Origin: Schistosoma haematobium
Taxonomy: Eukaryota > Platyhelminthes > Trematoda > Strigeidida > Schistosomatidae
Assembly: GCF_000699445.3 (NCBI RefSeq)
Contig: NC_067195.1
Location: forward strand, 10,840,287-10,904,286
Reading direction: 5' to 3'
DNA: 64,000 nt
Shown: positions 28,200 through 63,159 of the stretch, piece by piece
Layout of the letters: each line of letters opens with the position of its first letter
Numbering within the stretch: position 1 is the stretch's first letter
The notes under the pieces: generated by a model
Told to the model about the DNA's origin: nothing
The model's database searches: none
The model's input: the letters and a program-made list of their open reading frames with translations, nothing else
Position numbers and translations under genes: made by a program

Positions 28200-28554
28200 T
28201 GTAATGCGGTGTCGAGTCGCGGTTGACTATGACCACCATTACAGGAAGACTACGTGCCAGTTAACAGATAAGATCCCCCGTAAGTCAAATATCAGGAGGC
28301 AGTTGATGGCTGTAGTCGAGATGTATTCGTTGGCGATCTTGTGATATCGAAAGAATACCGAGATCGTGCCAGGTTACAAGTGTAGTTACTGAGCGTATCT
28401 GAATTCGTGCAAGGTCACAATCAAAGGAAGAATGTATGTGTTTTGCTACCGTTAAACAAACACATAAGGTAAAACAAACCCTGATACAATTGGTTATAAT
28501 AATAATTATTTCCATTACAAAAACGCGTTCTCTTGATAAAAGTAGGTCACTACA
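28200..28554 (-). repeat. solo LTR of a Boudicca-like gypsy family, reverse orientation, 355 bp
   Basis: Runs TGTAATGCGGTGTCGAG to AGTAGGTCACTACA, so in its own sense it starts TGTAGTGACC and ends CACCGCATTACA. Both ends resemble the array LTRs but the middle is diverged. The 4-bp repeat ACTT lies directly before (28196-28199) and after (28555-28558), the expected size of a Ty3/gypsy target duplication. No internal sequence is present, so it is a solo LTR formed by LTR-LTR recombination. Confidence 0.85.
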
Positions 28555-28593: not shown

Positions 28594-28657
28594 GTAAATA
28601 TCAATAAAGTCTAAGATGATAAGCGCAGATTGGTCGATTTCATGCCATGGATTAAAT

Positions 28658-29065
28658 TGTAGTGACTCACGTTTATCACGAGAACACGACTGGTTTAATA
28701 AAAACAATTATTATTATAACCAACTGTACCAGTGTTTGTTTTAACGTGCTTTTGTTTGACTGTGCTAATGACAGCTATTTTGTGCTTCCGTTCTTTTACA
28801 CACACTTCGATTGTAACTTCGCGCGAATTCGGTTACGTTCTGTAACCAAGCTTGTATCCTGGCACGATCTCGGTATCCTTTCGATGCCACGAGATCGCCA
28901 GCAAATACATATCTCGATTTGGTCCATTAATTGCCTTCTGGTATTTGGCTTCTCGGGGATTTTATGGAGTCATTTGGAACGAGCTTCTTACGCCTTCTGA
29001 TCTATTTGGCACGTGTTTCTTGGTAGCGGTGTTCATAGTTAATCTCAACTCGACGCCACGCTACA
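28658..29065 (+). repeat. array LTR 1 (408 bp), described as the type LTR
   Basis: TG...CA ends (TGTAGTGACTCACG to CTCGACGCCACGCTACA). An AATAAA hexamer is at LTR positions 40-45 (GGTTTAATAAAAAC), a candidate poly(A) signal. It is not preceded by the polypurine tract found before LTRs 2-16, which marks it as the outer 5' LTR. The open frames through it are by-products. Confidence 0.93.
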
Positions 29066-29125
29066 ATTGGTGATCCCAAAGTTTGGGACACGCGACAATT
29101 GGTGACCCGTATTTTGGAACACGCC
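29063..29125 (+). promoter_or_regulatory. tandemly duplicated primer-binding-site region, type copy
   Basis: Two adjacent imperfect copies: 29063-29094 begins ACAATTGGTGATCCC and ends TTTGGGACACGCG; 29095-29125 begins ACAATTGGTGACCCG and ends TTTGGAACACGCC. Each has TGGTGAYCC, the first part of the tRNA-Trp site. The first copy includes the last three LTR bases, so only it is correctly placed to prime. The second is a closer match to TGGTGACCC. All 15 units have this arrangement. Confidence 0.7.
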
Positions 29126-29229
29126 TCTGCTTCTGGTCAAATCTTCCAAAGAAGCCAATTCGGTGAGTCTATGATTTATCTATCCACGTCTGTCGTATAT
29201 TTTCATATTTAATATATAATATACTCGAC

Positions 29230-29408
29230 ATGACGGATAACGATAAGAATAGTATTAATATAATAGACTCCCATTTATGTGTACCGAACTCTTGTTACTT
29301 TTTATTCGCGTGACGATGAATTCCACGCTTTATTCGAGAAATTTTCCCTATTATTTATTCTCCTCGCTGACCCGGCTGCTTGGTACGGAATGCATTCGCA
29401 TACGCATT
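29230..29408 (+). pseudogene. Gag N-terminal remnant, type copy (array unit 1)
   Basis: An ATG at 29230 opens MTDNDKNSINIIDSHL and stops at TGA 29311-29313. In another frame LADPAAWYGMHS (about 29366-29400) matches the WF..L signature of gypsy Gags, compare [12 protein letters not shown] in the intron-4 element. Just after it the sequence jumps into integrase. The frame is therefore broken and most of Gag is absent. Confidence 0.65.
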
Positions 29409-30206
29409 AACGTCTACCTCCCAGCATCAAATGGTTAAGTTGAACGGTTTCATTGCCAACTTAAAAGTGCTCTACGAGCACACGAGAACGACAACTGGTA
29501 TGAAACCTTATCGCTCGTCCCCTTAGGTATTCGAACGAGCTTGAAGGCAGATATACAATGTTCCGCCGCTGAACTGGTATACGGCACGACATTGCGTCTG
29601 CCCGGAGAATTCACACCACGGAGCAGACCTAATTTCGGTAAATCAGACTACGTCCATCGACTGTCTGCATTTATGCGAACGCTGTCTCCGGTGTCAACTC
29701 GAATACAACATCGACAGGTCGCTCTCTCTCGAGAGTTATCTACCTGTTCACATGTCTTTGTACGAGTAGATTCGGTACGCAAACCTTTGCAACAACCTTA
29801 CGAAGGCCCTTTTCGCGTGATCGCTCGTCACGAAAAGACCTTCAAGGTTGATCGACACGGCCGCGTCGAGATCGTCAGCATTGATCGTCTCAAACCAGCA
29901 CACGTCGATGACTGTGCCCTATCTGATAACCTGAGATTCAATGCTAGACCAAGCAAACCTACTAGCGGGATCCTCAAACCATCTTCAGGTCCCACACTAG
30001 ATACACCTGAGACCTCACTCTCACGTCCCAGTCAACAGCACGCGTCATCTGCACCGTCTACGGACGAGACGACAGTCTCACGTCCAGATCAGCAGACCAC
30101 GCCGCCCTTGACTTCGGATGAGATTGCAGGCTCACGCGACGCGAACGAGACTGCCGTCTCACGTTCCGGTCGCCGAGTACGTTTACCCGTACGCTTCCTC
30201 GACTAG
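29409..30206 (+). pseudogene. integrase C-terminal fragment, type copy (array unit 1)
   Basis: Homology resumes at VYLPASNG, is cut by TAA at 29436-29438, and continues as VERFHCQLK, the segment with the third catalytic residue (Glu) of DD35E. The frame then stays open to the stop at 30204-30206: [38 protein letters not shown] and a Ser/Thr-rich tail closing GRRVRLPVRFLD. The zinc finger and the first two catalytic Asp residues are deleted. The tail has three degenerate repeats around (S)xSRPxQQ (SLSRPSQQ, TVSRPDQQ), which explains its length polymorphism between units. There is no ATG after the stop before well into the fragment, so production of a protein is doubtful. Confidence 0.85.
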
Positions 30207-30763
30207 TCGCACAGTCGACAACCGATACGGTGTAGGAATATTCCTATGCTACTTGCATGCTACACTCTTCTCTTTTTTGATTCTCTTTTTGTTTCCTGAG
30301 CCCACGCCTTCGACCATCTCCGTTTGGTTCCGTCGACTTCAGTCAACTTTGGCGAAAGCTGGATTGGCCACCCACGCTCTTGTCAACGCACTCAGTCGAT
30401 ATATTGGTTTCGAATGCTTGGCATACGCTTGGTCTCGAACTTGATCGTTATGGTCGCTTCTGGTTCATCGGCTCAACGTGGTTTCGTCCTACGTCTGCAG
30501 CGTTTCTGGTGCGCACTCCTACGAACGCCCTCTTCAGATTCTGGATACAAACCACTCTGGTGTAGCATGCCAACTCAATCAATAAATACAACACATCGCT
30601 CCTGGTACCGTTCTCCGAAAACGACCTTCGTTGGCAACTCGACGATTAACGATCGCTTTCCTGTTCGCCAATTCTTCCGTCCTACAATCGCTCGTCAGCC
30701 GATCAGTCCCACGATTCAAACCGCTATTTATCGAAAGTGTAAACCCTTTCTAGCGGGGGCTCC
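30207..30763 (+). other. 3' noncoding stretch and polypurine tract, type copy (array unit 1)
   Basis: 557 bp between the integrase stop and LTR 2, ending CTAGCGGGGGCTCC. Its reverse counterpart is at 7061-7326. Long frames cross it into the LTR, but they start at TTG codons and match nothing. Confidence 0.7.
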
Positions 30764-32870
30764 TGTAGTGACTCACGTTTATCACGAGAACACGACTGGT
30801 TTAATAAAAACAATTATTATTATAACCAACTGTACCAGTGTTTGTTTTAACGTGCTTTTGTTTGACTGTGCTAATGACAGCTATTTTGTGCTTCCGTTCT
30901 TTTACACACACTTCGATTGTAACTTCGCGCGAATTCGGTTACGTTCTGTAACCAAGCTTGTATCCTGGCACGATCTCGGTATCCTTTCGATGCCACGAGA
31001 TCGCCAGCAAATACATATCTCGATTTGGTCCATTAATTGCCTTCTGGTATTTGGCTTCTCGGGGATTTTATGGAGTCATTTGGAACGAGCTTCTTACGCC
31101 TTCTGATCTATTTGGCACGTGTTTCTTGGTAGCGGTGTTCATAGTTAATCTCAACTCGACGCCACGCTACAATTGGTGATCCCAAAGTTTGGGACACGCG
31201 ACAATTGGTGACCCGTATTTTGGAACACGCCTCTGCTTCTGGTCAAATCTTCCAAAGAAGCCAATTCGGTGAGTCTATGATTTATCTATCCACGTCTGTC
31301 GTATATTTTCATATTTAATATATAATATACTCGACATGACGGATAACGATAAGAATAGTATTAATATAATAGACTCCCATTTATGTGTACCGAACTCTTG
31401 TTACTTTTTATTCGCGTGACGATGAATTCCACGCTTTATTCGAGAAATTTTCCCCTATTATTTATTCTCCTCGCTGACCCGGCTGCTTGGTACGGAATGC
31501 ATTCGCATACGCATTAACGTCTACCTCCCAGCATCAAATGGTTAAGTTGAACGGTTTCATTGCCAACTTAAAAGTGCTCTACGAGCACACGAGAACGACA
31601 ACTGGTATGAAACCTTATCGCTCGTCCCCTTAGGTATTCGAACGAGCTTGAAGGCAGATATACAATGTTCCGCCGCTGAACTGGTATACGGCACGACATT
31701 GCGTCTGCCCGGAGAATTCACACCACGGAGCAGACCTAATTTCGGTAAATCAGACTACGTCCATCGACTGTCTGCATTTATGCGAACGCTGTCTCCGGTG
31801 TCAACTCGAATACAACATCGACAGGTCGCTCTCTCTCGAGAGTTATCTACCTGTTCACATGTCTTTGTACGAGTAGATTCGGTACGCAAACCTTTGCAAC
31901 AACCTTACGAAGGCCCTTTTCGCGTGATCGCTCGTCACGAAAAGACCTTCAAGGTTGATCGACACGGCCGCGTCGAGATCGTCAGCATTGATCGTCTCAA
32001 ACCAGCACACGTCGATGACTGTGCCCTATCTGATAACCTGAGATTCAATGCTAGACCAAGCAAACCTACTAGCGGGATCCTCAAACCATCTTCAGGTCCC
32101 ACGCTAGATACACCTGAGACCTCACTCTCACGTCCCAGTCAACAGCACGCGTCATCTGCACCGTCTACGGACGAGACGACAGTCTCACGTCCAGATCAGC
32201 AGACCACGCCGCCCTTGACTTCGGATGAGATTGCAGGCTCACGCGACGCGAACGAGACTGCCGTCTCACGTTCCGGTCGCCGAGTACGTTTACCCGTACG
32301 CTTCCTCGACTAGTCGCACAGTCGACAACCGATACGGTGTAGGAATATTCCTATGCTACTTGCATGCTACACTCTTCTCTTTTTTGATTCTCTTTTTGTT
32401 TCCTGAGCCCACGCCTTCGACCATCTCCGTTTGGTTCCGTCGACTTCAGTCAACTTTGGCGAAAGCTGGATTGGCCACCCACGCTCTTGTCAACGCACTC
32501 AGTCGATATATTGGTTTCGAATGCTTGGCATACGCTTGGTCTCGAACTTGATCGTTATGGTCGCTTCTGGTTCATCGGCTCAACGTGGTTTCGTCCTACG
32601 TCTGCAGCGTTTCTGGTGCGCACTCCTACGAACGCCCTCTTCAGATTCTGGATACAAACCACTCTGGTGTAGCATGCCAACTCAATCAATAAATACAACA
32701 CATCGCTCCTGGTACCGTTCTCCGAAAACGACCTTCGTTGGCAACTCGACGATTAACGATCGCTTTCCTGTTCGCCAATTCTTCCGTCCTACAATCGCTC
32801 GTCAGCCGATCAGTCCCACGATTCAAACCGCTATTTATCGAAAGTGTAAACCCTTTCTAGCGGGGGCTCC
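30764..32870 (+). mobile_element. array unit 2 (2,107 bp)
   Basis: LTR 30764-31171; integrase tail frame 31648-32313. Differs from unit 1 by TTTCCCCTATT (four C) and CACGCTAG. Shares its marker profile with unit 13. Confidence 0.93.
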
Positions 32871-34979
32871 TGTAGTGACTCACGTTTATCACGAGAACAC
32901 GACTGGTTTAATAAAAACAATTATTATTATAACCAACTGTACCAGTGTTTGTTTTAACGTGCTTTTGTTTGACTGTGCTAATGACAGCTATTTTGTGCTT
33001 CCGTTCTTTTTACACACACTTCGATTGTAACTTCGCGCGAATTCGGTTACGTTCTGTAACCAAGCTTGTATCCTGGCACGATCTCGGTATCCTTTCGATG
33101 CCACGAGATCGCCAGCAAATACATATCTCGATTTGGTCCATTAATTGCCTTCTGGTATTTGGCTTCTCGGGGATTTTATGGAGTCATTTGGAACGAGCTT
33201 CTTACGCCTTCTGATCTATTTGGCACGTGTTTCTTGGTAGCGGTGTTCATAGTTAATCTCAACTCGACGCCACGCTACAATTGGTGATCCCAAAGTTTGG
33301 GACACGCGACAATTGGTGACCCGTATTTTGGAACACGCCTCTGCTTCTGGTCAAATCTTCCAAAGAAGCCAATTCGGTGAGTCTATGATTTATCTATCCA
33401 CGTCTGTCGTATATTTTCATATTTAATATATAATATACTCGACATGACGGATAACGATAAGAATAGTATTAATATAATAGACTCCCATTTATGTGTACCG
33501 AACTCTTGTTACTTTTTATTCGCGTGACGATGAATTCCACGCTTTATTCGAGAAATTTTCCCCTATTATTTATTCTCCTCGCTGACCCGGCTGCTTGGTA
33601 CGGAATGCATTCGCATACGCATTAACGTCTACCTCCCAGCATCAAATGGTTAAGTTGAACGGTTTCATTGCCAACTTAAAAGTGCTCTACGAGCACACGA
33701 GAACGACAACTGGTATGAAACCTTATCGCTCGTCCCCTTAGGTATTCGAACGAGCTTGAAGGCAGATATACAATGTTCCGCCGCTGAACTGGTATACGGC
33801 ACGACATTGCGTCTGCCCGGAGAATTCACACCACGGAGCAGACCTAATTTCGGTAAATCAGACTACGTCCATCGACTGTCTGCATTTATGCGAACGCTGT
33901 CTCCGGTGTCAACTCGAATACAACATCGACAGGTCGCTCTCTCTCGAGAGTTATCTACCTGTTCACATGTCTTTGTACGAGTAGATTCGGTACGCAAACC
34001 TTTGCAACAACCTTACGAAGGCCCTTTTCGCGTGATCGCTCGTCACGAAAAGACCTTCAAGGTTGATCGACACGGCCGCGTCGAGATCGTCAGCATTGAT
34101 CGTCTCAAACCAGCACACGTCGATGACTGTGCCCTATCTGATAACCTGAGATTCAATGCTAGACCAAGCAAACCTACTAGCGGGATCCTCAAACCATCTT
34201 CAGGTCCCACACTAGATACACCTGAGACCTCACTCTCACGTCCCAGTCAACAGCACGCGTCATCTGCACCGTCTACGGACGAGACGACAGTCTCACGTCC
34301 AGATCAGCAGACCACGCCGCCCTTGACTTCGGATGAGATTGCAGGCTCACGCGACGCGAACGAGACTGCCGTCTCACGTTCCGGTCGCCGAGTACGTTTA
34401 CCCGTACGCTTCCTCGACTAGTCGCACAGTCGACAACCGATACGGTGTAGGAATATTCCTATGCTACTTGCATGCTACACTCTTCTCTTTTTTTGATTCT
34501 CTTTTTGTTTCCTGAGCCCACGCCTTCGACCATCTCCGTTTGGTTCCGTCGACTTCAGTCAACTTTGGCGAAAGCTGGATTGGCCACCCACGCTCTTGTC
34601 AACGCACTCAGTCGATATATTGGTTTCGAATGCTTGGCATACGCTTGGTCTCGAACTTGATCGTTATGGTCGCTTCTGGTTCATCGGCTCAACGTGGTTT
34701 CGTCCTACGTCTGCAGCGTTTCTGGTGCGCACTCCTACGAACGCCCTCTTCAGATTCTGGATACAAACCACTCTGGTGTAGCATGCCAACTCAATCAATA
34801 AATACAACACATCGCTCCTGGTACCGTTCTCCGAAAACGACCTTCGTTGGCAACTCGACGATTAACGATCGCTTTCCTGTTCGCCAATTCTTCCGTCCTA
34901 CAATCGCTCGTCAGCCGATCAGTCCCACGATTCAAACCGCTATTTATCGAAAGTGTAAACCCTTTCTAGCGGGGGCTCC
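32871..34979 (+). mobile_element. array unit 3 (2,109 bp)
   Basis: LTR 32871-33279 has one extra T (TTCTTTTTACAC, 409 bp); integrase tail frame 33756-34421. Markers: four C, CACACTAG, T7 run. The same profile occurs in units 14 and 15 at the far end of the array. Confidence 0.93.
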
Positions 34980-37085
34980 TGTAGTGACTCACGTTTATCA
35001 CGAGAACACGACTGGTTTAATAAAAACAATTATTATTATAACCAACTGTACCAGTGTTTGTTTTAACGTGCTTTTGTTTGACTGTGCTAATGACAGCTAT
35101 TTTGTGCTTCCGTTCTTTTACACACACTTCGATTGTAACTTCGCGCGAATTCGGTTACGTTCTGTAACCAAGCTTGTATCCTGGCACGATCTCGGTATCC
35201 TTTCGATGCCACGAGATCGCCAGCAAATACATATCTCGATTTGGTCCATTAATTGCCTTCTGGTATTTGGCTTCTCGGGGATTTTATGGAGTCATTTGGA
35301 ACGAGCTTCTTACGCCTTCTGATCTATTTGGCACGTGTTTCTTGGTAGCGGTGTTCATAGTTAATCTCAACTCGACGCCACGCTACAATTGGTGATCCCA
35401 AAGTTTGGGACACGCGACAATTGGTGACCCGTATTTTGGAACACGCCTCTGCTTCTGGTCAAATCTTCCAAAGAAGCCAATTCGGTGAGTCTATGATTTA
35501 TCTATCCACGTCTGTCGTATATTTTCATATTTAATATATAATATACTCGACATGACGGATAACGATAAGAATAGTATTAATATAATAGACTCCCATTTAT
35601 GTGTACCGAACTCTTGTTACTTTTTATTCGCGTGACGATGAATTCCACGCTTTATTCGAGAAATTTTCCCTATTATTTATTCTCCTCGCTGACCCGGCTG
35701 CTTGGTACGGAATGCATTCGCATACGCATTAACGTCTACCTCCCAGCATCAAATGGTTAAGTTGAACGGTTTCATTGCCAACTTAAAAGTGCTCTACGAG
35801 CACACGAGAACGACAACTGGTATGAAACCTTATCGCTCGTCCCCTTAGGTATTCGAACGAGCTTGAAGGCAGATATACAATGTTCCGCCGCTGAACTGGT
35901 ATACGGCACGACATTGCGTCTGCCCGGAGAATTCACACCACGGAGCAGACCTAATTTCGGTAAATCAGACTACGTCCATCGACTGTCTGCATTTATGCGA
36001 ACGCTGTCTCCGGTGTCAACTCGAATACAACATCGACAGGTCGCTCTCTCTCGAGAGTTATCTACCTGTTCACATGTCTTTGTACGAGTAGATTCGGTAC
36101 GCAAACCTTTGCAACAACCTTACGAAGGCCCTTTTCGCGTGATCGCTCGTCACGAAAAGACCTTCAAGGTTGATCGACACGGCCGCGTCGAGATCGTCAG
36201 CATTGATCGTCTCAAACCAGCACACGTCGATGACTGTGCCCTATCTGATAACCTGAGATTCAATGCTAGACCAAGCAAACCTACTAGCGGGATCCTCAAA
36301 CCATCTTCAGGTCCCACACTAGATACACCTGAGACCTCACTCTCACGTCCCAGTCAACAGCACGCGTCATCTGCACCGTCTACGGACGAGACGACAGTCT
36401 CACGTCCAGATCAGCAGACCACGCCGCCCTTGACTTCGGATGAGATTGCAGGCTCACGCGACGCGAACGAGACTGCCGTCTCACGTTCCGGTCGCCGAGT
36501 ACGTTTACCCGTACGCTTCCTCGACTAGTCGCACAGTCGACAACCGATACGGTGTAGGAATATTCCTATGCTACTTGCATGCTACACTCTTCTCTTTTTT
36601 GATTCTCTTTTTGTTTCCTGAGCCCACGCCTTCGACCATCTCCGTTTGGTTCCGTCGACTTCAGTCAACTTTGGCGAAAGCTGGATTGGCCACCCACGCT
36701 CTTGTCAACGCACTCAGTCGATATATTGGTTTCGAATGCTTGGCATACGCTTGGTCTCGAACTTGATCGTTATGGTCGCTTCTGGTTCATCGGCTCAACG
36801 TGGTTTCGTCCTACGTCTGCAGCGTTTCTGGTGCGCACTCCTACGAACGCCCTCTTCAGATTCTGGATACAAACCACTCTGGTGTAGCATGCCAACTCAA
36901 GCAATAAATACAACACATCGCTCCTGGTACCGTTCTCCGAAAACGACCTTCGTTGGCAACTCGACGATTAACGATCGCTTTCCTGTTCGCCAATTCTTCC
37001 GTCCTACAATCGCTCGTCAGCCGATCAGTCCCACGATTCAAACCGCTATTTATCGAAAGTGTAAACCCTTTCTAGCGGGGGCTCC
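34980..37085 (+). mobile_element. array unit 4 (2,106 bp)
   Basis: LTR 34980-35387; integrase tail frame 35863-36528. Markers as unit 1 except TCAAGCAATAA, the first of the central-block variants to appear. Confidence 0.93.
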
Positions 37086-39191
37086 TGTAGTGACTCACGT
37101 TTATCACGAGAACACGACTGGTTTAATAAAAACAATTATTATTATAACCAACTGTACCAGTGTTTGTTTTAACGTGCTTTTGTTTGACTGTGCTAATGAC
37201 AGCTATTTTGTGCTTCCGTTCTTTTACACACACTTCGATTGTAACTTCGCGCGAATTCGGTTACGTTCTGTAACCAAGCTTGTATCCTGGCACGATCTCG
37301 GTATCCTTTCGATGCCACGAGATCGCCAGCAAATACATATCTCGATTTGGTCCATTAATTGCCTTCTGGTATTTGGCTTCTCGGGGATTTTATGGAGTCA
37401 TTTGGAACGAGCTTCTTACGCCTTCTGATCTATTTGGCACGTGTTTCTTGGTAGCGGTGTTCATAGTTAATCTCAACTCGACGCCACGCTACAATTGGTG
37501 ATCCCAAAGTTTGGGACACGCGACAATTGGTGACCCGTATTTTGGAACACGCCTCTGCTTCTGGTCAAATCTTCCAAAGAAGCCAATTCGGTGAGTCTAT
37601 GATTTATCTATCCACGTCTGTCGTATATTTTCATATTTAATATATAATATACTCGACATGACGGATAACGATAAGAATAGTATTAATATAATAGACTCCC
37701 ATTTATGTGTACCGAACTCTTGTTACTTTTTATTCGCGTGACGATGAATTCCACGCTTTATTCGAGAAATTTTCCCTATTATTTATTCTCCTCGCTGACC
37801 CGGCTGCTTGGTACGGAATGCATTCGCATACGCATTAACGTCTACCTCCCAGCATCAAATGGTTAAGTTGAACGGTTTCATTGCCAACTTAAAAGTGCTC
37901 TACGAGCACACGAGAACGACAACTGGTATGAAACCTTATCGCTCGTCCCCTTAGGTATTCGAACGAGCTTGAAGGCAGATATACAATGTTCCGCCGCTGA
38001 ACTGGTATACGGCACGACATTGCGTCTGCCCGGAGAATTCACACCACGGAGCAGACCTAATTTCGGTAAATCAGACTACGTCCATCGACTGTCTGCATTT
38101 ATGCGAACGCTGTCTCCGGTGTCAACTCGAATACAACATCGACAGGTCGCTCTCTCTCGAGAGTTATCTACCTGTTCACATGTCTTTGTACGAGTAGATT
38201 CGGTACGCAAACCTTTGCAACAACCTTACGAAGGCCCTTTTCGCGTGATCGCTCGTCACGAAAAGACCTTCAAGGTTGATCGACACGGCCGCGTCGAGAT
38301 CGTCAGCATTGATCGTCTCAAACCAGCACACGTCGATGACTGTGCCCTATCTGATAACCTGAGATTCAATGCTAGACCAAGCAAACCTACTAGCGGGATC
38401 CTCAAACAATCTTCAGGTCCCACGCTAGATACACCTGAGACCTCACTCTCACGTCCCAGTCAACAGCACGCGTCATCTGCACCGTCTACGGACGAGACGA
38501 CAGTCTCACGTCCAGATCAGCAGACCACGCCGCCCTTGACTTCGGATGAGATTGCAGGCTCACGCGACGCGAACGAGACTGCCGTCTCACGTTCCGGTCG
38601 CCGAGTACGTTTACCCGTACGCTTCCTCGACTAGTCGCACAGTCGACAACCGATACGGTGTAGGAATATTCCTATGCTACTTGCATGCTACACTCTTCTC
38701 TTTTTTGATTCTCTTTTTGTTTCCTGAGCCCACGCCTTCGACCATCTCCGTTTGGTTCCGTCGACTTCAGTCAACTTTGGCGAAAGCTGGATTGGCCACC
38801 CACGCTCTTGTCAACGCACTCAGTCGATATATTGGTTTCGAATGCTTGGCATACGCTTGGTCTCGAACTTGGTCGTTATGGTCGCTTCTGGTTCATCGGC
38901 TCAACGTGGTTTCGTCCTACGTCTGCAGCGTTTCTGGTGCGCACTCCTACGAACGCCCTCTTCAGATTCTGGATACAAACCACTCTGGTGTAGCATGCCA
39001 ACTCAAGCAATAAATACAACACATCGCTCCTGGTACCGTTCTCCGAAAACGACCTTCGTTGGCAACTCGACGATTAACGATCGCTTTCCTGTTCGCCAAT
39101 TCTTCCGTCCTACAATCGCTCGTCAGCCGATCAGTCCCACGATTCAAACCGCTATTTATCGAAAGTGTAAACCCTTTCTAGCGGGGGCTCC
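37086..39191 (+). mobile_element. array unit 5 (2,106 bp)
   Basis: LTR 37086-37493; integrase tail frame 37969-38634. Adds CTTGGTCG and has a private Pro-to-Gln change (CTCAAACAATC, 38401-38411). Still has Cys at the DDCALS site. Confidence 0.93.
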
Positions 39192-49722: not shown

Positions 49723-51824
49723 TGTAGTGACTCACGTTTATCACGAGAACACGACTGGTTTAATAAAAACAATTATTATTATAACCAACTGTACCAGTGT
49801 TTGTTTTAACGTGCTTTTGTTTGACTGTGCTAATGACAGCTATTTTGTGCTTCCATTCTTTTACACACACTTCGATTGTAACTTCGCGCGAATTCGGTTA
49901 CGTTCTGTAACCAAGCTTGTATCCTGGCACGATCTCGGTATCCTTTCGATGCCACGAGATCGCCAGCAAATACATATCTCGACTTGGTCCATTAATTGCC
50001 TTCTGGTATTTGGCTTCTCGGGGATTTTATGGAGTCATTTGGAACGAGCTTCTTACGCCTTCTGATCTATTTGGCACGTGTTTCTTGGTAGCGGTGTTCA
50101 TAGTTAATCTCAACTCGACGCCACGCTACAATTGGTGATCCCAAAGTTTGGGACACGCGACAATTGGTGACCCGTATTTTGGAACACGCCTCTGCTTCTG
50201 GTCAAATCTTCCAAAGAAGCCAATTCGGTGAGTCTATGATTTATCTATCCACGTCTGTCGTATATTTTCATATTTAATATATAATATACTCGACATGACG
50301 GATAACGATAAGAATAGTATTAATATAATAGACTCCCATTTATGTGTACCGAACTCTTGTTACTTTTTATTCGCGTGACGATGAATTCCACGCTTTATTC
50401 GAGAAATTTTCCCCTATTATTTATTCTCCTCGCTGACCCGGCTGCTTGGTACGGAATGCATTCGCATACGCATTAACGTCTACCTCCCAGCATCAAATGG
50501 TTAAGTTGAACGGTTTCATTGCCAACTTAAAAGTGCTCTACGAGCACACGAGAACGACAACTGGTATGAAACCTTATCGCTCGTCCCCTTAGGTATTCGA
50601 ACGAGCTTGAAGGCAGATATACAATGTTCCGCCGCTGAACTGGTATACGGCACGACATTGCGTCTGCCCGGAGAATTCACACCACGGAGCAGACCTAATT
50701 TCGGTAAATCAGACTACGTCCATCGACTGTCTGCATTTATGCGAACGCTGTCTCCGGTGTCAACTCGAATACAACATCGACAGGTCGCTCTCTCTCGAGA
50801 GTTATCTACCTGTTCACATGTCTTTGTACGAGTAGATTCGGTACGCAAACCTTTGCAACAACCTTACGAAGGCCCTTTTCGCGTGATCGCTCGTCACGAA
50901 AAGACCTTCAAGGTTGATCGACACGGCCGCGTCGAGATCGTCAGCATTGATCGTCTCAAACCAGCACACGTCGATGACAGTGCCCTATCTGATAACCTGA
51001 GATTCAATGCTAGACCAAGCAAACCTACTAGCGGGATCCTCAAACCATCTTCAGGTCCCACGCTAGATACACCTGAGACCTCACGTCCCAGTCAACAGCA
51101 CGCGTCATCTGCACCGTCTACGGACGAGACGACAGTCTCACGTCCAGATCAGCAGACCACGCCGCCCTTGACTTCGGATGAGATTGCAGGCTCACGCGAC
51201 GCGAACGAGACTGCCGTCTCACGTTCCGGTCGCCGAGTACGTTTACCCGTACGCTTCCTCGACTAGTCGCACAGTCGACAACCGATACGGTGTAGGAATA
51301 TTCCTATGCTACTTGCATGCTACACTCTTCTCTTTTTTTGATTTTCTTTTTGTTTCCTGAGCCCACGCCTTCGACCATCTCCGTTTGGTTCCGTCGACTT
51401 CAGTCAACTTTGGCGAAAGCTGGATTGGCCACCCACGCTCTTGTCAACGCACTCAGTCGATATATTGGTTTCGAATGCTTGGCATACGCTTGGTCTCGAA
51501 CTTGGTCGTTATGGTCGCTTCTGGTTCATCGGCTCAACGTGGTTTCGTCCTACGTCTGCAGCGTTTCTGGTGCGCACTCCTACGAACGCCCTCTTCAGAT
51601 TCTGGATACAAACCACTCTGGTGTAGCATGCCAACTCAAGCAATAAATACAACACATCGCTCCTGGTACCGTTCTCCGAAAACGACCTTCGTTGGCAACT
51701 CGACGATCAACGATCGCTTTCCTGTTCGCCAATTCTTCCGTCCTACAATCGCTCGTCAGCCGATCAGTCCCACGATTCAAACCGCTATTTATCGAAAGTG
51801 TAAACCCTTTCTAGCGGGGGCTCC
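49723..51824 (+). mobile_element. array unit 11 (2,102 bp, shortest)
   Basis: LTR 49723-50130 (CTTCCATTC). A 6-bp in-frame deletion in the Ser/Thr-rich tail (GACCTCACGTCC) gives a 219-codon frame, 50607-51266. Combines T7 with GATTTTC, a mix not seen elsewhere. Confidence 0.93.
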
Positions 51825-53929
51825 TGTAGTGACTCACGTTTATCACGAGAACACGACTGGTTTAATAAAAACAATTATTATTATAACCAACTGTACCAGT
51901 GTTTGTTTTAACGTGCTTTTGTTTGACTGTGCTAATGACAGCTATTTTGTGCTTCCGTTCTTTTACACACACTTCGATTGTAACTTCGCGCGAATTCGGT
52001 TACGTTCTGTAACCAAGCTTGTATCCTGGCACGATCTCGGTATCCTTTCGATGCCACGAGATCGCCAGCAAATACATATCTCGACTTGGTCCATTAATTG
52101 CCTTCTGGTATTTGGCTTCTCGGGGATTTTATGGAGTCATTTGGAACGAGCTTCTTACGCCTTCTGATCTATTTGGCACGTGTTTCTTGGTAGCGGTGTT
52201 CATAGTTAATCTCAACTCGACGCCACGCTACAATTGGTGATCCCAAAGTTTGGGACACGCGACAATTGGTGACCCGTATTTTGGAACACGCCTCTGCTTC
52301 TGGTCAAATCTTCCAAAGAAGCCAATTCGGTGAGTCTATGATTTATCTATCCACGTCTGTCGTATATTTTCATATTTAATATATAATATACTCGACATGA
52401 CGGATAACGATAAGAATAGTATTAATATAATAGACTCCCATTTATGTGTACCGAACTCTTGTTACTTTTTATTCGCGTGACGATGAATTCCACGCTTTAT
52501 TCGAGAAATTTTCCCCTATTATTTATTCTCCTCGCTGACCCGGCTGCTTGGTACGGAATGCATTCGCATACGCATTAACGTCTACCTCCCAGCATCAAAT
52601 GGTTAAGTTGAACGGTTTCATTGCCAACTTAAAAGTGCTCTACGAGCACACGAGAACGACAACTGGTATGAAACCTTATCGCTCGTCCCCTTAGGTATTC
52701 GAACGAGCTTGAAGGCAGATATACAATGTTCCGCCGCTGAACTGGTATACGGCACGACATTGCGTCTGCCCGGAGAATTCACACCACGGAGCAGACCTAA
52801 TTTCGGTAAATCAGACTACGTCCATCGACTGTCTGCATTTATGCGAACGCTGTCTCCGGTGTCAACTCGAATACAACATCGACAGGTCGCTCTCTCTCGA
52901 GAGTTATCTACCTGTTCACATGTCTTTGTACGAGTAGATTCGGTACGCAAACCTTTGCAACAACCTTACGAAGGCCCTTTTCGCGTGATCGCTCGTCACG
53001 AAAAGACCTTCAAGGTTGATCGACACGGCCGCGTCGAGATCGTCAGCATTGATCGTCTCAAACCAGCACACGTCGATGACAGTGCCCTATCTGATAACCT
53101 GAGATTCAATGCTAGACCAAGCAAACCTACTAGCGGGATCCTCAAACCATCTTCAGGTCCCACGCTAGATACACCTGAGACCTCACTCACGTCCCAGTCA
53201 ACAGCACGCGTCATCTGCACCGTCTACGGACGAGACGACAGTCTCACGTCCAGATCAGCAGACCACGCCGCCCTTGACTTCGGATGAGATTGCAGGCTCA
53301 CGCGACGCGAACGAGACTGCCGTCTCACGTTCCGGTCGCCGAGTACGTTTACCCGTACGCTTCCTCGACTAGTCGCACAGTCGACAACCGATACGGTGTA
53401 GGAATATTCCTATGCTACTTGCATGCTACACTCTTCTCTTTTTTGATTCTCTTTTTGTTTCCTGAGCCCACGCCTTCGACCATCTCCGTTTGGTTCCGTC
53501 GACTTCAGTCAACTTTGGCGAAAGCTGGATTGGCCACCCACGCTCTTGTCAACGCACTCAGTCGATATATTGGTTTCGAATGCTTGGCATACGCTTGGTC
53601 TCGAACTTGGTCGTTATGGTCGCTTCTGGTTCATCGGCTCAACGTGGTTTCGTCCTACGTCTGCAGCGTTTCTGGTGCGCACTCCTACGAACGCCCTCTT
53701 CAGATTCTGGATACAAACCACTCTGGTGTAGCATGCCAACTCAATCAATAAATACAACACATCGCTCCTGGTACCGTTCTCCGAAAACGACCTTCGTTGG
53801 CAACTCGACGATTAACGATCGCTTTCCTGTTCGCCAATTCTTCCGTCCTACAATCGCTCGTCAGCCGATCAGTCCCACGATTCAAACCGCTATTTATCGA
53901 AAGTGTAAACCCTTTCTAGCGGGGGCTCC
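51825..53929 (+). mobile_element. array unit 12 (2,105 bp)
   Basis: LTR 51825-52232. 2-bp deletion, frame 52709-53287 (192 codons). A transition unit: it keeps Ser and CTTGGTCG but returns to TCAATCAATAA and GATTAACG. Confidence 0.93.
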
Positions 53930-56036
53930 TGTAGTGACTCACGTTTATCACGAGAACACGACTGGTTTAATAAAAACAATTATTATTATAACCAACTGTA
54001 CCAGTGTTTGTTTTAACGTGCTTTTGTTTGACTGTGCTAATGACAGCTATTTTGTGCTTCCGTTCTTTTACACACACTTCGATTGTAACTTCGCGCGAAT
54101 TCGGTTACGTTCTGTAACCAAGCTTGTATCCTGGCACGATCTCGGTATCCTTTCGATGCCACGAGATCGCCAGCAAATACATATCTCGATTTGGTCCATT
54201 AATTGCCTTCTGGTATTTGGCTTCTCGGGGATTTTATGGAGTCATTTGGAACGAGCTTCTTACGCCTTCTGATCTATTTGGCACGTGTTTCTTGGTAGCG
54301 GTGTTCATAGTTAATCTCAACTCGACGCCACGCTACAATTGGTGATCCCAAAGTTTGGGACACGCGACAATTGGTGACCCGTATTTTGGAACACGCCTCT
54401 GCTTCTGGTCAAATCTTCCAAAGAAGCCAATTCGGTGAGTCTATGATTTATCTATCCACGTCTGTCGTATATTTTCATATTTAATATATAATATACTCGA
54501 CATGACGGATAACGATAAGAATAGTATTAATATAATAGACTCCCATTTATGTGTACCGAACTCTTGTTACTTTTTATTCGCGTGACGATGAATTCCACGC
54601 TTTATTCGAGAAATTTTCCCCTATTATTTATTCTCCTCGCTGACCCGGCTGCTTGGTACGGAATGCATTCGCATACGCATTAACGTCTACCTCCCAGCAT
54701 CAAATGGTTAAGTTGAACGGTTTCATTGCCAACTTAAAAGTGCTCTACGAGCACACGAGAACGACAACTGGTATGAAACCTTATCGCTCGTCCCCTTAGG
54801 TATTCGAACGAGCTTGAAGGCAGATATACAATGTTCCGCCGCTGAACTGGTATACGGCACGACATTGCGTCTGCCCGGAGAATTCACACCACGGAGCAGA
54901 CCTAATTTCGGTAAATCAGACTACGTCCATCGACTGTCTGCATTTATGCGAACGCTGTCTCCGGTGTCAACTCGAATACAACATCGACAGGTCGCTCTCT
55001 CTCGAGAGTTATCTACCTGTTCACATGTCTTTGTACGAGTAGATTCGGTACGCAAACCTTTGCAACAACCTTACGAAGGCCCTTTTCGCGTGATCGCTCG
55101 TCACGAAAAGACCTTCAAGGTTGATCGACACGGCCGCGTCGAGATCGTCAGCATTGATCGTCTCAAACCAGCACACGTCGATGACTGTGCCCTATCTGAT
55201 AACCTGAGATTCAATGCTAGACCAAGCAAACCTACTAGCGGGATCCTCAAACCATCTTCAGGTCCCACGCTAGATACACCTGAGACCTCACTCTCACGTC
55301 CCAGTCAACAGCACGCGTCATCTGCACCGTCTACGGACGAGACGACAGTCTCACGTCCAGATCAGCAGACCACGCCGCCCTTGACTTCGGATGAGATTGC
55401 AGGCTCACGCGACGCGAACGAGACTGCCGTCTCACGTTCCGGTCGCCGAGTACGTTTACCCGTACGCTTCCTCGACTAGTCGCACAGTCGACAACCGATA
55501 CGGTGTAGGAATATTCCTATGCTACTTGCATGCTACACTCTTCTCTTTTTTGATTCTCTTTTTGTTTCCTGAGCCCACGCCTTCGACCATCTCCGTTTGG
55601 TTCCGTCGACTTCAGTCAACTTTGGCGAAAGCTGGATTGGCCACCCACGCTCTTGTCAACGCACTCAGTCGATATATTGGTTTCGAATGCTTGGCATACG
55701 CTTGGTCTCGAACTTGATCGTTATGGTCGCTTCTGGTTCATCGGCTCAACGTGGTTTCGTCCTACGTCTGCAGCGTTTCTGGTGCGCACTCCTACGAACG
55801 CCCTCTTCAGATTCTGGATACAAACCACTCTGGTGTAGCATGCCAACTCAATCAATAAATACAACACATCGCTCCTGGTACCGTTCTCCGAAAACGACCT
55901 TCGTTGGCAACTCGACGATTAACGATCGCTTTCCTGTTCGCCAATTCTTCCGTCCTACAATCGCTCGTCAGCCGATCAGTCCCACGATTCAAACCGCTAT
56001 TTATCGAAAGTGTAAACCCTTTCTAGCGGGGGCTCC
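53930..56036 (+). mobile_element. array unit 13 (2,107 bp)
   Basis: LTR 53930-54337, back to CTCGATTTGG; integrase tail frame 54814-55479. All markers equal unit 2. Confidence 0.93.
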
Positions 56037-58145
56037 TGTAGTGACTCACGTTTATCACGAGAACACGACTGGTTTAATAAAAACAATTATTATTATAACC
56101 AACTGTACCAGTGTTTGTTTTAACGTGCTTTTGTTTGACTGTGCTAATGACAGCTATTTTGTGCTTCCGTTCTTTTTACACACACTTCGATTGTAACTTC
56201 GCGCGAATTCGGTTACGTTCTGTAACCAAGCTTGTATCCTGGCACGATCTCGGTATCCTTTCGATGCCACGAGATCGCCAGCAAATACATATCTCGATTT
56301 GGTCCATTAATTGCCTTCTGGTATTTGGCTTCTCGGGGATTTTATGGAGTCATTTGGAACGAGCTTCTTACGCCTTCTGATCTATTTGGCACGTGTTTCT
56401 TGGTAGCGGTGTTCATAGTTAATCTCAACTCGACGCCACGCTACAATTGGTGATCCCAAAGTTTGGGACACGCGACAATTGGTGACCCGTATTTTGGAAC
56501 ACGCCTCTGCTTCTGGTCAAATCTTCCAAAGAAGCCAATTCGGTGAGTCTATGATTTATCTATCCACGTCTGTCGTATATTTTCATATTTAATATATAAT
56601 ATACTCGACATGACGGATAACGATAAGAATAGTATTAATATAATAGACTCCCATTTATGTGTACCGAACTCTTGTTACTTTTTATTCGCGTGACGATGAA
56701 TTCCACGCTTTATTCGAGAAATTTTCCCCTATTATTTATTCTCCTCGCTGACCCGGCTGCTTGGTACGGAATGCATTCGCATACGCATTAACGTCTACCT
56801 CCCAGCATCAAATGGTTAAGTTGAACGGTTTCATTGCCAACTTAAAAGTGCTCTACGAGCACACGAGAACGACAACTGGTATGAAACCTTATCGCTCGTC
56901 CCCTTAGGTATTCGAACGAGCTTGAAGGCAGATATACAATGTTCCGCCGCTGAACTGGTATACGGCACGACATTGCGTCTGCCCGGAGAATTCACACCAC
57001 GGAGCAGACCTAATTTCGGTAAATCAGACTACGTCCATCGACTGTCTGCATTTATGCGAACGCTGTCTCCGGTGTCAACTCGAATACAACATCGACAGGT
57101 CGCTCTCTCTCGAGAGTTATCTACCTGTTCACATGTCTTTGTACGAGTAGATTCGGTACGCAAACCTTTGCAACAACCTTACGAAGGCCCTTTTCGCGTG
57201 ATCGCTCGTCACGAAAAGACCTTCAAGGTTGATCGACACGGCCGCGTCGAGATCGTCAGCATTGATCGTCTCAAACCAGCACACGTCGATGACTGTGCCC
57301 TATCTGATAACCTGAGATTCAATGCTAGACCAAGCAAACCTACTAGCGGGATCCTCAAACCATCTTCAGGTCCCACACTAGATACACCTGAGACCTCACT
57401 CTCACGTCCCAGTCAACAGCACGCGTCATCTGCACCGTCTACGGACGAGACGACAGTCTCACGTCCAGATCAGCAGACCACGCCGCCCTTGACTTCGGAT
57501 GAGATTGCAGGCTCACGCGACGCGAACGAGACTGCCGTCTCACGTTCCGGTCGCCGAGTACGTTTACCCGTACGCTTCCTCGACTAGTCGCACAGTCGAC
57601 AACCGATACGGTGTAGGAATATTCCTATGCTACTTGCATGCTACACTCTTCTCTTTTTTTGATTCTCTTTTTGTTTCCTGAGCCCACGCCTTCGACCATC
57701 TCCGTTTGGTTCCGTCGACTTCAGTCAACTTTGGCGAAAGCTGGATTGGCCACCCACGCTCTTGTCAACGCACTCAGTCGATATATTGGTTTCGAATGCT
57801 TGGCATACGCTTGGTCTCGAACTTGATCGTTATGGTCGCTTCTGGTTCATCGGCTCAACGTGGTTTCGTCCTACGTCTGCAGCGTTTCTGGTGCGCACTC
57901 CTACGAACGCCCTCTTCAGATTCTGGATACAAACCACTCTGGTGTAGCATGCCAACTCAATCAATAAATACAACACATCGCTCCTGGTACCGTTCTCCGA
58001 AAACGACCTTCGTTGGCAACTCGACGATTAACGATCGCTTTCCTGTTCGCCAATTCTTCCGTCCTACAATCGCTCGTCAGCCGATCAGTCCCACGATTCA
58101 AACCGCTATTTATCGAAAGTGTAAACCCTTTCTAGCGGGGGCTCC
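56037..58145 (+). mobile_element. array unit 14 (2,109 bp)
   Basis: LTR 56037-56445 with the extra T; integrase tail frame 56922-57587. All markers equal unit 3. Confidence 0.93.
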
Positions 58146-60254
58146 TGTAGTGACTCACGTTTATCACGAGAACACGACTGGTTTAATAAAAACAATTATT
58201 ATTATAACCAACTGTACCAGTGTTTGTTTTAACGTGCTTTTGTTTGACTGTGCTAATGACAGCTATTTTGTGCTTCCGTTCTTTTTACACACACTTCGAT
58301 TGTAACTTCGCGCGAATTCGGTTACGTTCTGTAACCAAGCTTGTATCCTGGCACGATCTCGGTATCCTTTCGATGCCACGAGATCGCCAGCAAATACATA
58401 TCTCGATTTGGTCCATTAATTGCCTTCTGGTATTTGGCTTCTCGGGGATTTTATGGAGTCATTTGGAACGAGCTTCTTACGCCTTCTGATCTATTTGGCA
58501 CGTGTTTCTTGGTAGCGGTGTTCATAGTTAATCTCAACTCGACGCCACGCTACAATTGGTGATCCCAAAGTTTGGGACACGCGACAATTGGTGACCCGTA
58601 TTTTGGAACACGCCTCTGCTTCTGGTCAAATCTTCCAAAGAAGCCAATTCGGTGAGTCTATGATTTATCTATCCACGTCTGTCGTATATTTTCATATTTA
58701 ATATATAATATACTCGACATGACGGATAACGATAAGAATAGTATTAATATAATAGACTCCCATTTATGTGTACCGAACTCTTGTTACTTTTTATTCGCGT
58801 GACGATGAATTCCACGCTTTATTCGAGAAATTTTCCCCTATTATTTATTCTCCTCGCTGACCCGGCTGCTTGGTACGGAATGCATTCGCATACGCATTAA
58901 CGTCTACCTCCCAGCATCAAATGGTTAAGTTGAACGGTTTCATTGCCAACTTAAAAGTGCTCTACGAGCACACGAGAACGACAACTGGTATGAAACCTTA
59001 TCGCTCGTCCCCTTAGGTATTCGAACGAGCTTGAAGGCAGATATACAATGTTCCGCCGCTGAACTGGTATACGGCACGACATTGCGTCTGCCCGGAGAAT
59101 TCACACCACGGAGCAGACCTAATTTCGGTAAATCAGACTACGTCCATCGACTGTCTGCATTTATGCGAACGCTGTCTCCGGTGTCAACTCGAATACAACA
59201 TCGACAGGTCGCTCTCTCTCGAGAGTTATCTACCTGTTCACATGTCTTTGTACGAGTAGATTCGGTACGCAAACCTTTGCAACAACCTTACGAAGGCCCT
59301 TTTCGCGTGATCGCTCGTCACGAAAAGACCTTCAAGGTTGATCGACACGGCCGCGTCGAGATCGTCAGCATTGATCGTCTCAAACCAGCACACGTCGATG
59401 ACTGTGCCCTATCTGATAACCTGAGATTCAATGCTAGACCAAGCAAACCTACTAGCGGGATCCTCAAACCATCTTCAGGTCCCACACTAGATACACCTGA
59501 GACCTCACTCTCACGTCCCAGTCAACAGCACGCGTCATCTGCACCGTCTACGGACGAGACGACAGTCTCACGTCCAGATCAGCAGACCACGCCGCCCTTG
59601 ACTTCGGATGAGATTGCAGGCTCACGCGACGCGAACGAGACTGCCGTCTCACGTTCCGGTCGCCGAGTACGTTTACCCGTACGCTTCCTCGACTAGTCGC
59701 ACAGTCGACAACCGATACGGTGTAGGAATATTCCTATGCTACTTGCATGCTACACTCTTCTCTTTTTTTGATTCTCTTTTTGTTTCCTGAGCCCACGCCT
59801 TCGACCATCTCCGTTTGGTTCCGTCGACTTCAGTCAACTTTGGCGAAAGCTGGATTGGCCACCCACGCTCTTGTCAACGCACTCAGTCGATATATTGGTT
59901 TCGAATGCTTGGCATACGCTTGGTCTCGAACTTGATCGTTATGGTCGCTTCTGGTTCATCGGCTCAACGTGGTTTCGTCCTACGTCTGCAGCGTTTCTGG
60001 TGCGCACTCCTACGAACGCCCTCTTCAGATTCTGGATACAAACCACTCTGGTGTAGCATGCCAACTCAATCAATAAATACAACACATCGCTCCTGGTACC
60101 GTTCTCCGAAAACGACCTTCGTTGGCAACTCGACGATTAACGATCGCTTTCCTGTTCGCCAATTCTTCCGTCCTACAATCGCTCGTCAGCCGATCAGTCC
60201 CACGATTCAAACCGCTATTTATCGAAAGTGTAAACCCTTTCTAGCGGGGGCTCC
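58146..60254 (+). mobile_element. array unit 15 (2,109 bp)
   Basis: LTR 58146-58554 with the extra T; integrase tail frame 59031-59696. Markers identical to unit 14, so the two look like a recent duplicate. Confidence 0.93.
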
Positions 60255-60663
60255 TGTAGTGACTCACGTTTATCACGAGAACACGACTGGTTTAATAAAA
60301 ACAATTATTATTATAACCAACTGTACCAGTGTTTGTTTTAACGTGCTTTTGTTTGACTGTGCTAATGACAGCTATTTTGTGCTTCCGTTCTTTTTACACA
60401 CACTTCGATTGTAACTTCGCGCGAATTCGGTTACGTTCTGTAACCAAGCTTGTATCCTGGCACGATCTCGGTATCCTTTCGATGCCACGAGATCGCCAGC
60501 AAATACATATCTCGATTTGGTCCATTAATTGCCTTCTGGTATTTGGCTTCTCGGGGATTTTATGGAGTCATTTGGAACGAGCTTCTTACGCCTTCTGATC
60601 TATTTGGCACGTGTTTCTTGGTAGCGGTGTTCATAGTTAATCTCAACTCGACGCCACGCTACA
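60255..60663 (+). repeat. array LTR 16, terminal 3' LTR (409 bp)
   Basis: Has the extra T of LTRs 14 and 15 and ends CGCCACGCTACA. The next bases, AACTTGTATG, are unique sequence, not the primer site that follows every other array LTR. Confidence 0.94.
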
Positions 60664-61185
60664 AACTTGTATGTCAGTGTTTCAATAGTATGAACTCCGA
60701 TTCGCTCTATTTAATATAAGAAGTTACTTGAACGGTATCACGTTTTTCCATAAGTAATAATAATATATTTCTGTCAGAGCAGGTACACGCCATTTCTATA
60801 GTCATGATCTAAAATTTACAATAGTTTGCCAAAAGTATGCTTCCAAAGTATAGTCATTAAATAGACTAAATCAATAAAAGTAAATAACAGTAAACTCTTG
60901 CAGATATCTTAGAGTGTTGACGATTAGGTTTATTTTTCAGCATTATACTGATTACAGTTGTTAAAATATTTCTCTAAAGTGGAGCTAAACATTTTGTAGT
61001 GGGACAGACATAGGTATGATGAATTATTAGATTAAAATCGAACTGGCTCTTGTTGCAAGAACTAAATGTGATTAGGGACTCCAGATTAGAGAATGCAGTA
61101 ATGAAGAACAATGAGTTATGACATTAAACAAGGTAGAGTGCGTTCAAATGATGGAATGGAAGTCGAAGGCAGAATAAGGTTTGCT
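60664..61185. other. 522 bp of AT-rich unique sequence
   Basis: No gene or repeat recognised between the array and the Penelope element. Confidence 0.6.
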
Positions 61186-61197: not shown

Positions 61198-61455
61198 TTA
61201 AAGCAATTAGTCCCTTTTGTAAATTTCGATAGAACAACGAGAAGACGGAGTTGATCTGAAAAATGTGATGTATTTGCGCTATACATTTCGAACAGTCTGG
61301 TCACACATATTTGTCAAGGCATTTTTATATGAAAATTAATAAAGGTCAAACAAATAAAAGTACAATTAAAATAAATAAGGGAGAGAAAGAATAAGAAATT
61401 GTCGCGTTATCCTAGGCCATAGAATGACTTAAGGATTACCAAGGTAAATTCAAGG

Positions 61456-62947: not shown

Positions 62948-63159
62948 TCCTTAAGTCATTCTATGGCCTAGGATAACGCGACAATTTCTTATTCTTTCTC
63001 TCCCCTTATTTATTTTAATTGTACTTTTATTTGTTTGACCTTTATTAATTTTCATATAAAAATGCCTTGACAAATATGTGTGACCAGACTGTTCGAAATG
63101 TATAGCGCAAATACATCACATTTTTCAGATCAACTCCGTCTTCTCGTTGTTCTATCGAA

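What the first reader, a model, noticed from the sequence alone, without database searches (positions are those of the whole stretch)
28658..60663. 32-kb head-to-tail array of one LTR retrotransposon derivative, one LTR shared at each junction
Sixteen LTRs alternate with fifteen internal segments at a 2.1-kb period, and both ends fall exactly on LTR boundaries. Independent insertions would each have two LTRs and a target duplication; here neighbours share one LTR. This fits unequal exchange between LTRs after a single insertion, or integration of a multimer copied from a one-LTR circle. In effect an LTR element has become a satellite. Tandem LTR-element arrays are known, but 15 near-identical copies of a defective one in a fluke are worth describing.
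Basis: partly seen in the sequence, partly recalled or inferred. Interest (0 to 1): 0.88.

Follow-up and report, generated by a model that had tools for sequence, protein, structure and literature searches.

The report
Tandem array of LTR-retrotransposon remnants
In a genome window that looks like a blood fluke's, a defective jumping gene sits in 15 head-to-tail copies that share their end repeats, a known kind of structure whose order of near-identical copies seems to record how the array grew.

Summary
Sixteen LTRs (408-409 bp) alternate with fifteen internal segments over 28658-60663, one LTR shared at each junction, both ends on LTR termini. The unit is a non-autonomous Ty3/gypsy-type deletion derivative: primer-site region, leader, C-terminal end of integrase, purine tract. 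The same leader/integrase junction is encoded in Schistosoma mattheei, S. haematobium, S. guineensis and S. intercalatum, so the derivative is probably older than this array.

The 15 units differ by 14 independent characters, in runs along the array. The summed adjacent-unit SNP difference is 22 against a shuffled mean of 54 (p about 1e-5). Twelve of 14 characters are shared by two or more units. This fits stepwise local duplication by unequal exchange or conversion. It does not fit a single multimer integration alone, and it argues against a wholesale assembly artefact. Units 2=13 and 3=14=15 are identical, so about three copies could be false. The flanks match at 3 of 4 target-site bases, so a single founding insertion is likely but unproven.

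Tandem LTR elements sharing LTRs are published from plants and, by citation, kangaroos, Drosophila and yeast: a new member of a known kind.

The parts
28658..60663 (+). whole array: 16 LTRs, 15 internal segments
28658..29065 (+). LTR 1 (outer 5' LTR; begins TGTAG, ends CTACA)
30764..31171 (+). LTR 2
32871..33279 (+). LTR 3
34980..35387 (+). LTR 4
37086..37493 (+). LTR 5
39192..39599 (+). LTR 6
41297..41704 (+). LTR 7
43404..43811 (+). LTR 8
45509..45916 (+). LTR 9
47616..48023 (+). LTR 10
49723..50130 (+). LTR 11
51825..52232 (+). LTR 12
53930..54337 (+). LTR 13
56037..56445 (+). LTR 14
58146..58554 (+). LTR 15
60255..60663 (+). LTR 16 (outer 3' LTR)
29066..29124 (+). primer-binding region of unit 1: two TGGTGA(T/C)CC motifs (29068 and 29100) in a 32-bp tandem duplication that TRF reports in all 15 units
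   Evidence: 15 rows of period 32; each motif 10 of 12, but only 18 and 16 of 34, to a recalled tRNA-Trp 3' end
29125..29419 (+). leader / gag-start remnant of unit 1, stop-to-stop frames of at most 59 aa
   Evidence: of six unit ORFs scanned none reached a Pfam cut-off
29420..29438 (+). deletion junction, approximate: integrase-like sequence resumes here
   Evidence: comparison with relatives and with the neighbouring element
29439..30206 (+). 255-aa open frame (stop included in coordinates): C-terminal part of integrase, unit 1
   Evidence: 255 aa in 11 of 15 units, 253 in unit 11, frameshifted in units 6, 8, 12
30752..30763 (+). polypurine-tract-like AGCGGGGGCTCC directly before LTR 2
28654..28657 (.). 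left flanking 4-mer AAAT (candidate target duplication)
60664..60667 (.). right flanking 4-mer AACT (3 of 4 match to the left)
28200..28554 (-). old inverted solo LTR of the same family, flanked by ACTT/ACTT: suggests a 4-bp target duplication for the family and serves as outgroup

Best explanation
One copy of a non-autonomous, gag-pol-deleted Ty3/gypsy (probably CsRn1-clade) element inserted here. Its two LTRs then mispaired. Shown by sequence: the LTR-internal-LTR alternation, exact LTR ends, near-identity, variants in runs, and units that look recombinant. Inferred: unequal homologous exchange or break repair between LTRs of sister chromatids or homologues added LTR-plus-internal units one or a few at a time. 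Conversion and at least one multi-unit copying event (units 2-3 and 13-15) then reshaped the array. Retrotransposition enzymes, supplied by another element, are needed only for the founding insertion; after that the array behaves as a small satellite. No host function is claimed.
For: The 16/15 alternation has exact boundaries. Over 9 SNPs the summed adjacent-unit difference is 22; the lowest of 100,000 shuffles was also 22 (mean 54.2, p 1e-5). Units 1-12 alone give 18 against 43.4 (p 1e-5). All 14 characters give 43 against 80.5 (p 6e-5). Twelve of 14 characters are shared by two or more units; two are singletons. Seven of 36 SNP pairs fail the four-gamete test. Four sites could be polarised, and at all four the ancestral state lies in core units 7-11 with derived states appearing stepwise towards unit 3. 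LTR and internal characters are equally dense (3 of 408 vs 11 of about 1,700, p 0.74).
Against: The flanking 4-mers are AAAT and AACT, not a perfect duplication, so ectopic exchange between two insertions, or a misjoin, is not excluded. Both ends share derived alleles while the core is ancestral, which simple outward growth does not give without an extra copying event. Three of the four polarised sites rest on a single diverged relic each, and columns 1341 and 1629 do not follow the gradient. Four-gamete failures can also come from recurrent mutation. Identical units 2=13 and 3=14=15 could be an assembly duplication. No reads, empty-site allele or second genome could be examined; the genome search gave no answer in 8 tries.
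Confidence: 0.65

Rival explanations
1. A concatemer formed off the chromosome (one-LTR circle copied by rolling circle, or tandem reverse transcript/cDNA) entered in one step, by integrase or by recombination with a resident LTR, as reported for yeast elements.
For: Also gives shared LTRs and exact LTR ends. PMC11899658 cites yeast integrase-independent tandem formation (passages). The ancestral core within derived ends is what an incoming multimer recombined into a resident element could leave.
Against: A one-step multimer should give mostly variants private to one unit. Instead 12 of 14 characters are shared and neighbours are the most alike, 0-4 SNPs apart. It could still be the founding step.
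Confidence: 0.17
2. Two insertions of the same family at separate sites were joined by ectopic LTR recombination, and then amplified.
For: The flanks lack a perfect 4-bp duplication, while the family's relic shows one (ACTT/ACTT).
Against: 3 of 4 bases match (6% by chance), and one mutated target base in an old, homogenised array is unremarkable. In rice 10 of 28 clean tandems had perfect TSDs (PMC11899658 section 10), so a missing one is common.
Confidence: 0.1
3. Assembly artefact: a shorter array inflated by the assembler, with units 13-15 repeating units 2-3.
For: Units 2=13 and 3=14=15 are letter-for-letter identical; no reads are available.
Against: Units 1-12 alone are ordered by similarity (18 against 43.4, p 1e-5), which a loop in an assembly graph would not be expected to produce. 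An artefact can account for about three units, not fifteen.
Confidence: 0.08

Closest known systems
Tandem LTR-retrotransposons of rice and other plants (PMC11899658; abstract, passages and section 10 seen)
   Same: LTR-internal-LTR-internal-LTR with shared LTRs, starting and ending in an LTR, high identity between units, mostly gypsy elements
   Different: The one locus whose unit number I saw has two internal regions and three LTRs; here there are 15 internals in one array, of a gag-pol-deleted derivative, in what looks like a fluke
Cassandra TRIM tandem arrays of plants (PMC7215508; abstract and Discussion seen)
   Same: Arrays of alternating LTRs and internal domains of a non-autonomous element; 'at least 12 copies' in the abstract, 'up to 12 repeats per array' in the Discussion
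   Different: Cassandra LTRs carry 5S RNA sequence; no Rfam family reached its cut-off in this window. Here the unit keeps an integrase remnant
Kangaroo endogenous retrovirus megasatellite and marsupial LTR-element satellites (cited in PMC11899658; two citing passages and the titles seen; papers not seen)
   Same: By title, the provirus structure is kept in a satellite repeat in an animal
   Different: Reported there at the centromeres of two kangaroo species; this is one 32-kb array about 18 kb downstream of the end of a dynein heavy-chain gene
CRM1TR / CRM4TR repeats of maize (PMC3648361; passages seen)
   Same: Tandem repeats derived from LTR plus adjacent sequence of a gypsy element; growth by gene conversion or unequal exchange proposed
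   Different: Their monomers are LTR-UTR pieces with boundaries inside LTR and UTR; here the whole derivative with complete LTRs is the unit
CsRn1-clade elements such as PwRn1 (PMC2582038; passages seen); schistosome members Boudicca and Saci-3 partly from recall
   Same: 4-bp target duplication (relic only), tRNA-Trp-like primer site, LTR of similar length (381 bp in PwRn1), fluke host
   Different: No gag, protease, RT or RNase H and only the end of integrase was detected here
W-elements of S. mansoni (PMC8490949; passages seen)
   Same: Tandem repeats in a schistosome, two with partial similarity to LTR elements (Saci-1, Boudicca)
   Different: Those passages describe fragments; here complete LTRs and the internal region form the unit

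Membership tests
Tandem LTR-retrotransposon array with shared LTRs | alternating LTR and internal segments, beginning and ending with an LTR | tested here: met
   16 LTR starts and ends, 15 internals
Tandem LTR-retrotransposon array with shared LTRs | high identity between units | tested here: met
   99.24-100% to unit 1; mean pairwise difference 5.75 characters, 0.27%
Tandem LTR-retrotransposon array with shared LTRs | target-site duplication around the whole array | tested here: inconclusive
   AAAT / AACT, 3 of 4; chance 6.1%
Tandem LTR-retrotransposon array with shared LTRs | empty site in another genome | not testable with these tools
   The genome search not answered in 8 tries; exact LTR 25-mer and 24-mer gave 0 matches in the prokaryote and viral collections, where a fluke sequence is not expected
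CsRn1 clade (Ty3/gypsy) | primer site complementary to tRNA-Trp | tested here: inconclusive
   two motifs, each 10 of 12 but only 18 and 16 of 34 to a tRNA-Trp 3' end typed from recall; no fluke tRNA at hand
CsRn1 clade (Ty3/gypsy) | 4-bp target duplication | tested here: inconclusive
   met in the one relic solo LTR, ACTT/ACTT; not perfect at the array; 4 bp reported for PwRn1 (PMC2582038)
CsRn1 clade (Ty3/gypsy) | reverse-transcriptase phylogeny and Gag CHCC motif | not testable with these tools
   no RT or Gag detected in the unit
Ty3/gypsy pol | integrase homology | tested here: met
   38% identity over 252 columns to the integrase end of the 736-aa ORF at 19504-21714, which has RNase H and integrase Pfam domains; relatives with PF00665. 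No Pfam family matched the 255-aa frame itself
TRIM | miniature element with no coding sequence (definition partly recalled) | tested here: not met
   2.1-kb unit with a 255-aa integrase remnant
Cassandra | 5S RNA sequence in the LTR | tested here: not met
   no Rfam family at gathering score in the window
Retrozyme (hammerhead-bearing LTR element, recalled) | hammerhead ribozyme in the LTR | tested here: not met
   no Rfam family at gathering score in the window
Satellite DNA | long homogenised tandem array | tested here: met
   for one locus
Satellite DNA | abundance in the genome or heterochromatin | not testable with these tools
   own genome could not be searched

The most novel reading that the evidence does not exclude
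The array is a satellite caught at birth, whose growth order is still readable. A core of ancestral units (7-11) grew outward by local duplications, neighbouring units now 0-4 SNPs apart, and the left-end block was then copied, perhaps through an extrachromosomal multi-unit circle, to the right end. Such an ordered series would allow the steps from transposon to satellite to be counted in one animal locus.
Probability: 0.25. Interest if true: 0.55.

Novelty: new member of a known kind. Interest (0 to 1): 0.36.

Why it matters
It is a long tandem of a non-autonomous LTR element in what looks like a schistosome genome. Complete LTRs mark every junction, and the ordered variants bear on how transposons turn into satellites. 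It also warns that annotation in such genomes may count one locus as many copies. I found no report of LTR-sharing tandem arrays in flukes. That rests on four searches aimed at flukes or Schistosoma (listings of 23 of 23, 10 of 12, 15 of 22 and 4 of 4 papers seen), mostly titles and abstract starts, in an open-licence library that lacks most subscription papers.

Tried and rejected
Independent insertions side by side: rejected. Each would bring two LTRs and its own target duplication; all 14 junctions between neighbouring units have one LTR.

Single-step multimer as the whole explanation: disfavoured by shared, ordered variants.

Retrozyme or Cassandra-like element: no Rfam match at gathering score.

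Intact protein domain in the unit: of six unit-1 ORFs none reached a Pfam cut-off at E up to 1. Two weak matches (DUF1806 at 0.03, zf-H2C2_2 at 0.12) fell below theirs.

Species naming through the dynein exon failed: the best named hit was Echinostoma caproni at 88%. I think full-length schistosome dyneins fall outside that search's length limits; this is inference.

Copies elsewhere: exact LTR 25-mer and 24-mer gave 0 matches in prokaryote and viral contigs, as expected for a fluke.

An 11-unit circular reading of the array (13=2, 14=3) does not carry through: 1 differs from 12 and 15 differs from 4.

The other element at 19074-22475 also shows no perfect target duplication in the printed flanks, so its absence is not special to the array.
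Full report
Observation. The array is real in the given sequence and its coordinates are exact. Sixteen LTRs start at 28658, 30764, 32871 and so on to 60255, and end at 29065 to 60663. They are 408-409 bp long and spaced 2102-2109 bp apart. Unit 1 matches 15 full units at 99.24-100% (itself included) plus a last LTR. The outermost LTR ends are TGTAG and CTACA, and other DNA starts immediately outside. The array has 47.1% GC against 37.4% in the flanks.

Anatomy of the unit. After the LTR come two TGGTGA(T/C)CC primer-site motifs within a 32-bp tandem duplication, then a leader with frames of at most 59 aa, and then a 255-aa open frame, 29439-30206. That frame is the C-terminal part of a Ty3/gypsy integrase, from the VERFH motif onward. 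It is 38% identical over 252 columns to the end of a neighbouring element's ORF, which has RNase H and integrase Pfam domains. A 3' region and a purine-rich AGCGGGGGCTCC lead into the next LTR. No gag, protease, RT or RNase H was detected; six unit-1 ORFs were scanned with Pfam and none reached a cut-off, the 255-aa frame included. That the E of VERFH is the third catalytic acid of integrase is recalled. The frame is 255 aa in 11 of 15 units, 253 aa in unit 11, and frameshifted in units 6, 8 and 12. As it stands no unit appears able to supply its own enzymes.

Host and relatives. The 255-aa frame has 1162 protein relatives at E up to 0.001 among 1805 candidates, 120 of them listed. The best are from Schistosoma mattheei, S. 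haematobium, S. curassoni, S. margrebowiei, S. guineensis and S. intercalatum. Five of the 120 (P0001, P0002, P0005, P0006, P0011) carry a motif of the leader-derived N-terminus, fused at the same place in the printed sequences. A search with P0001 residues 1-75 returned 12 proteins of 70 candidates. The same five cover 83-100% of that stretch; the other seven, all named S. margrebowiei, cover 49-63% and I did not inspect them for it. The deletion derivative is therefore shared by several species and probably older than this array. Whether it is in tandem elsewhere is unknown; P0001 standing for 16 member sequences on a listing of one contig is suggestive only. I could not name the window's species.

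Family. The relic solo LTR at 28200-28554, inverted and 72-75% identical in two pieces, is flanked by ACTT/ACTT. PwRn1 of the CsRn1 clade has a 4-bp duplication and a primer site compared with bovine tRNA-Trp (PMC2582038, passages including a supplement legend). Both primer motifs here match a recalled vertebrate tRNA-Trp end at 10 of 12 positions, but at only 18 and 16 of 34. CsRn1-clade membership is likely, but the RT and Gag that would decide it were not found and cannot be tested.

Target site. The array's flanking 4-mers are AAAT and AACT. Random flank 4-mers agree at 3 or more of 4 positions in 6.1% of draws. In rice, 10 of 28 clean tandems had perfect duplications (PMC11899658 section 10), so this neither proves nor disproves a single insertion.

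History from variants. Of 2109 alignment columns 18 vary among the 15 full units; I merged six columns of one small deletion region into two characters, leaving 14. Physical neighbours are most alike: the summed adjacent difference over 14 characters is 43 against a shuffled mean of 80.5 (p 6e-5). For the 9 SNPs it is 22 against 54.2, and for units 1-12 alone 18 against 43.4 (both p 1e-5). Neighbours differ by 0-4 SNPs (read from the table). Twelve of 14 characters are shared by two or more units; columns 1325 and 1359 are single-unit. Seven of 36 SNP pairs show all four combinations, so units have exchanged sequence, or some changes recurred. Units 2=13 and 3=14=15 are identical.

Polarity. 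Four sites could be polarised. Column 1258 (Ser against Cys at residue 159) rests on ten of ten printed relatives with Ser; columns 262, 1925 and 1993 rest on one diverged relic each, which is weak for 262. At all four the ancestral state lies in core units 7-11. Derived states appear at unit 6 (262, 1993), unit 5 (1258) and unit 3 (1925), and again at units 12-13. Column 1790 follows the same pattern but has no outgroup. Column 133 could not be polarised, because the two relics disagree. Columns 1341 and 1629 do not follow the gradient.

Mechanism. The simplest account is one insertion, then repeated unequal exchange or break repair between LTRs, with conversion and at least one multi-unit copying event. 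The order does not fit a single multimer event, where most changes should be private to units. An incoming multimer recombined into a resident element remains possible as a contributing step, since it could leave an ancestral core within derived ends. Assembly inflation can explain at most the identical right-end units, about three.

Known precedents. PMC11899658 (abstract, passages and section 10 seen) describes 266 tandem LTR structures in rice, reports them as widespread in plants, and cites kangaroo, Drosophila and yeast cases. PMC7215508 (abstract and Discussion seen) reports Cassandra arrays of at least 12 copies (abstract) or up to 12 per array (Discussion). PMC3648361 (passages) reports maize LTR-UTR repeats. 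PMC9659126 (passages of a review) tabulates animal satellites derived from LTRs, such as MALREP of Monopterus albus. PMC7004042 (passages) describes plant satellites grown from short tandem arrays inside LTR elements, a different route. PMC8490949 (passages) reports S. mansoni W-elements with fragments of LTR elements. The kangaroo, Drosophila and yeast papers I know here only through citation. This finding is thus a new member of a known kind, long and clean, in a host group from which my searches showed no such report.

Noticed in passing
19074-22475: A second LTR element with 100% identical LTRs (316 bp shared) and one 736-aa frame in which a gag-like start (by eye) runs into RNase H and integrase; it looks like an internal deletion derivative of another gypsy family. 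The printed flanks show no perfect target duplication.
   Followed up: partly
61220-63164: Inverted repeats of 100%, 99% and 94% complementarity beginning about 0.6 kb right of the array; both arms lie in frames that look like a Penelope-like GIY-YIG element (identity recalled; no Pfam match at E 0.01).
   Followed up: no
1847-2254 and 10595-11011: Exons of the C-terminal end of a dynein heavy chain, + strand; an AAT microsatellite starts at its stop codon.
   Followed up: partly
6741-8580: Old remnants of the array's family: inverted 3' internal end plus LTR (6750-7322), a forward LTR start (8525-8580), and a + strand frame with DUF7041, gag-like by eye (7292-7948).
   Followed up: partly
29057-29124: The primer-site region is itself duplicated (32 bp, 2.2 copies) in all 15 units, giving two tRNA-Trp-like primer motifs after each LTR that has an internal segment behind it.
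   Followed up: partly
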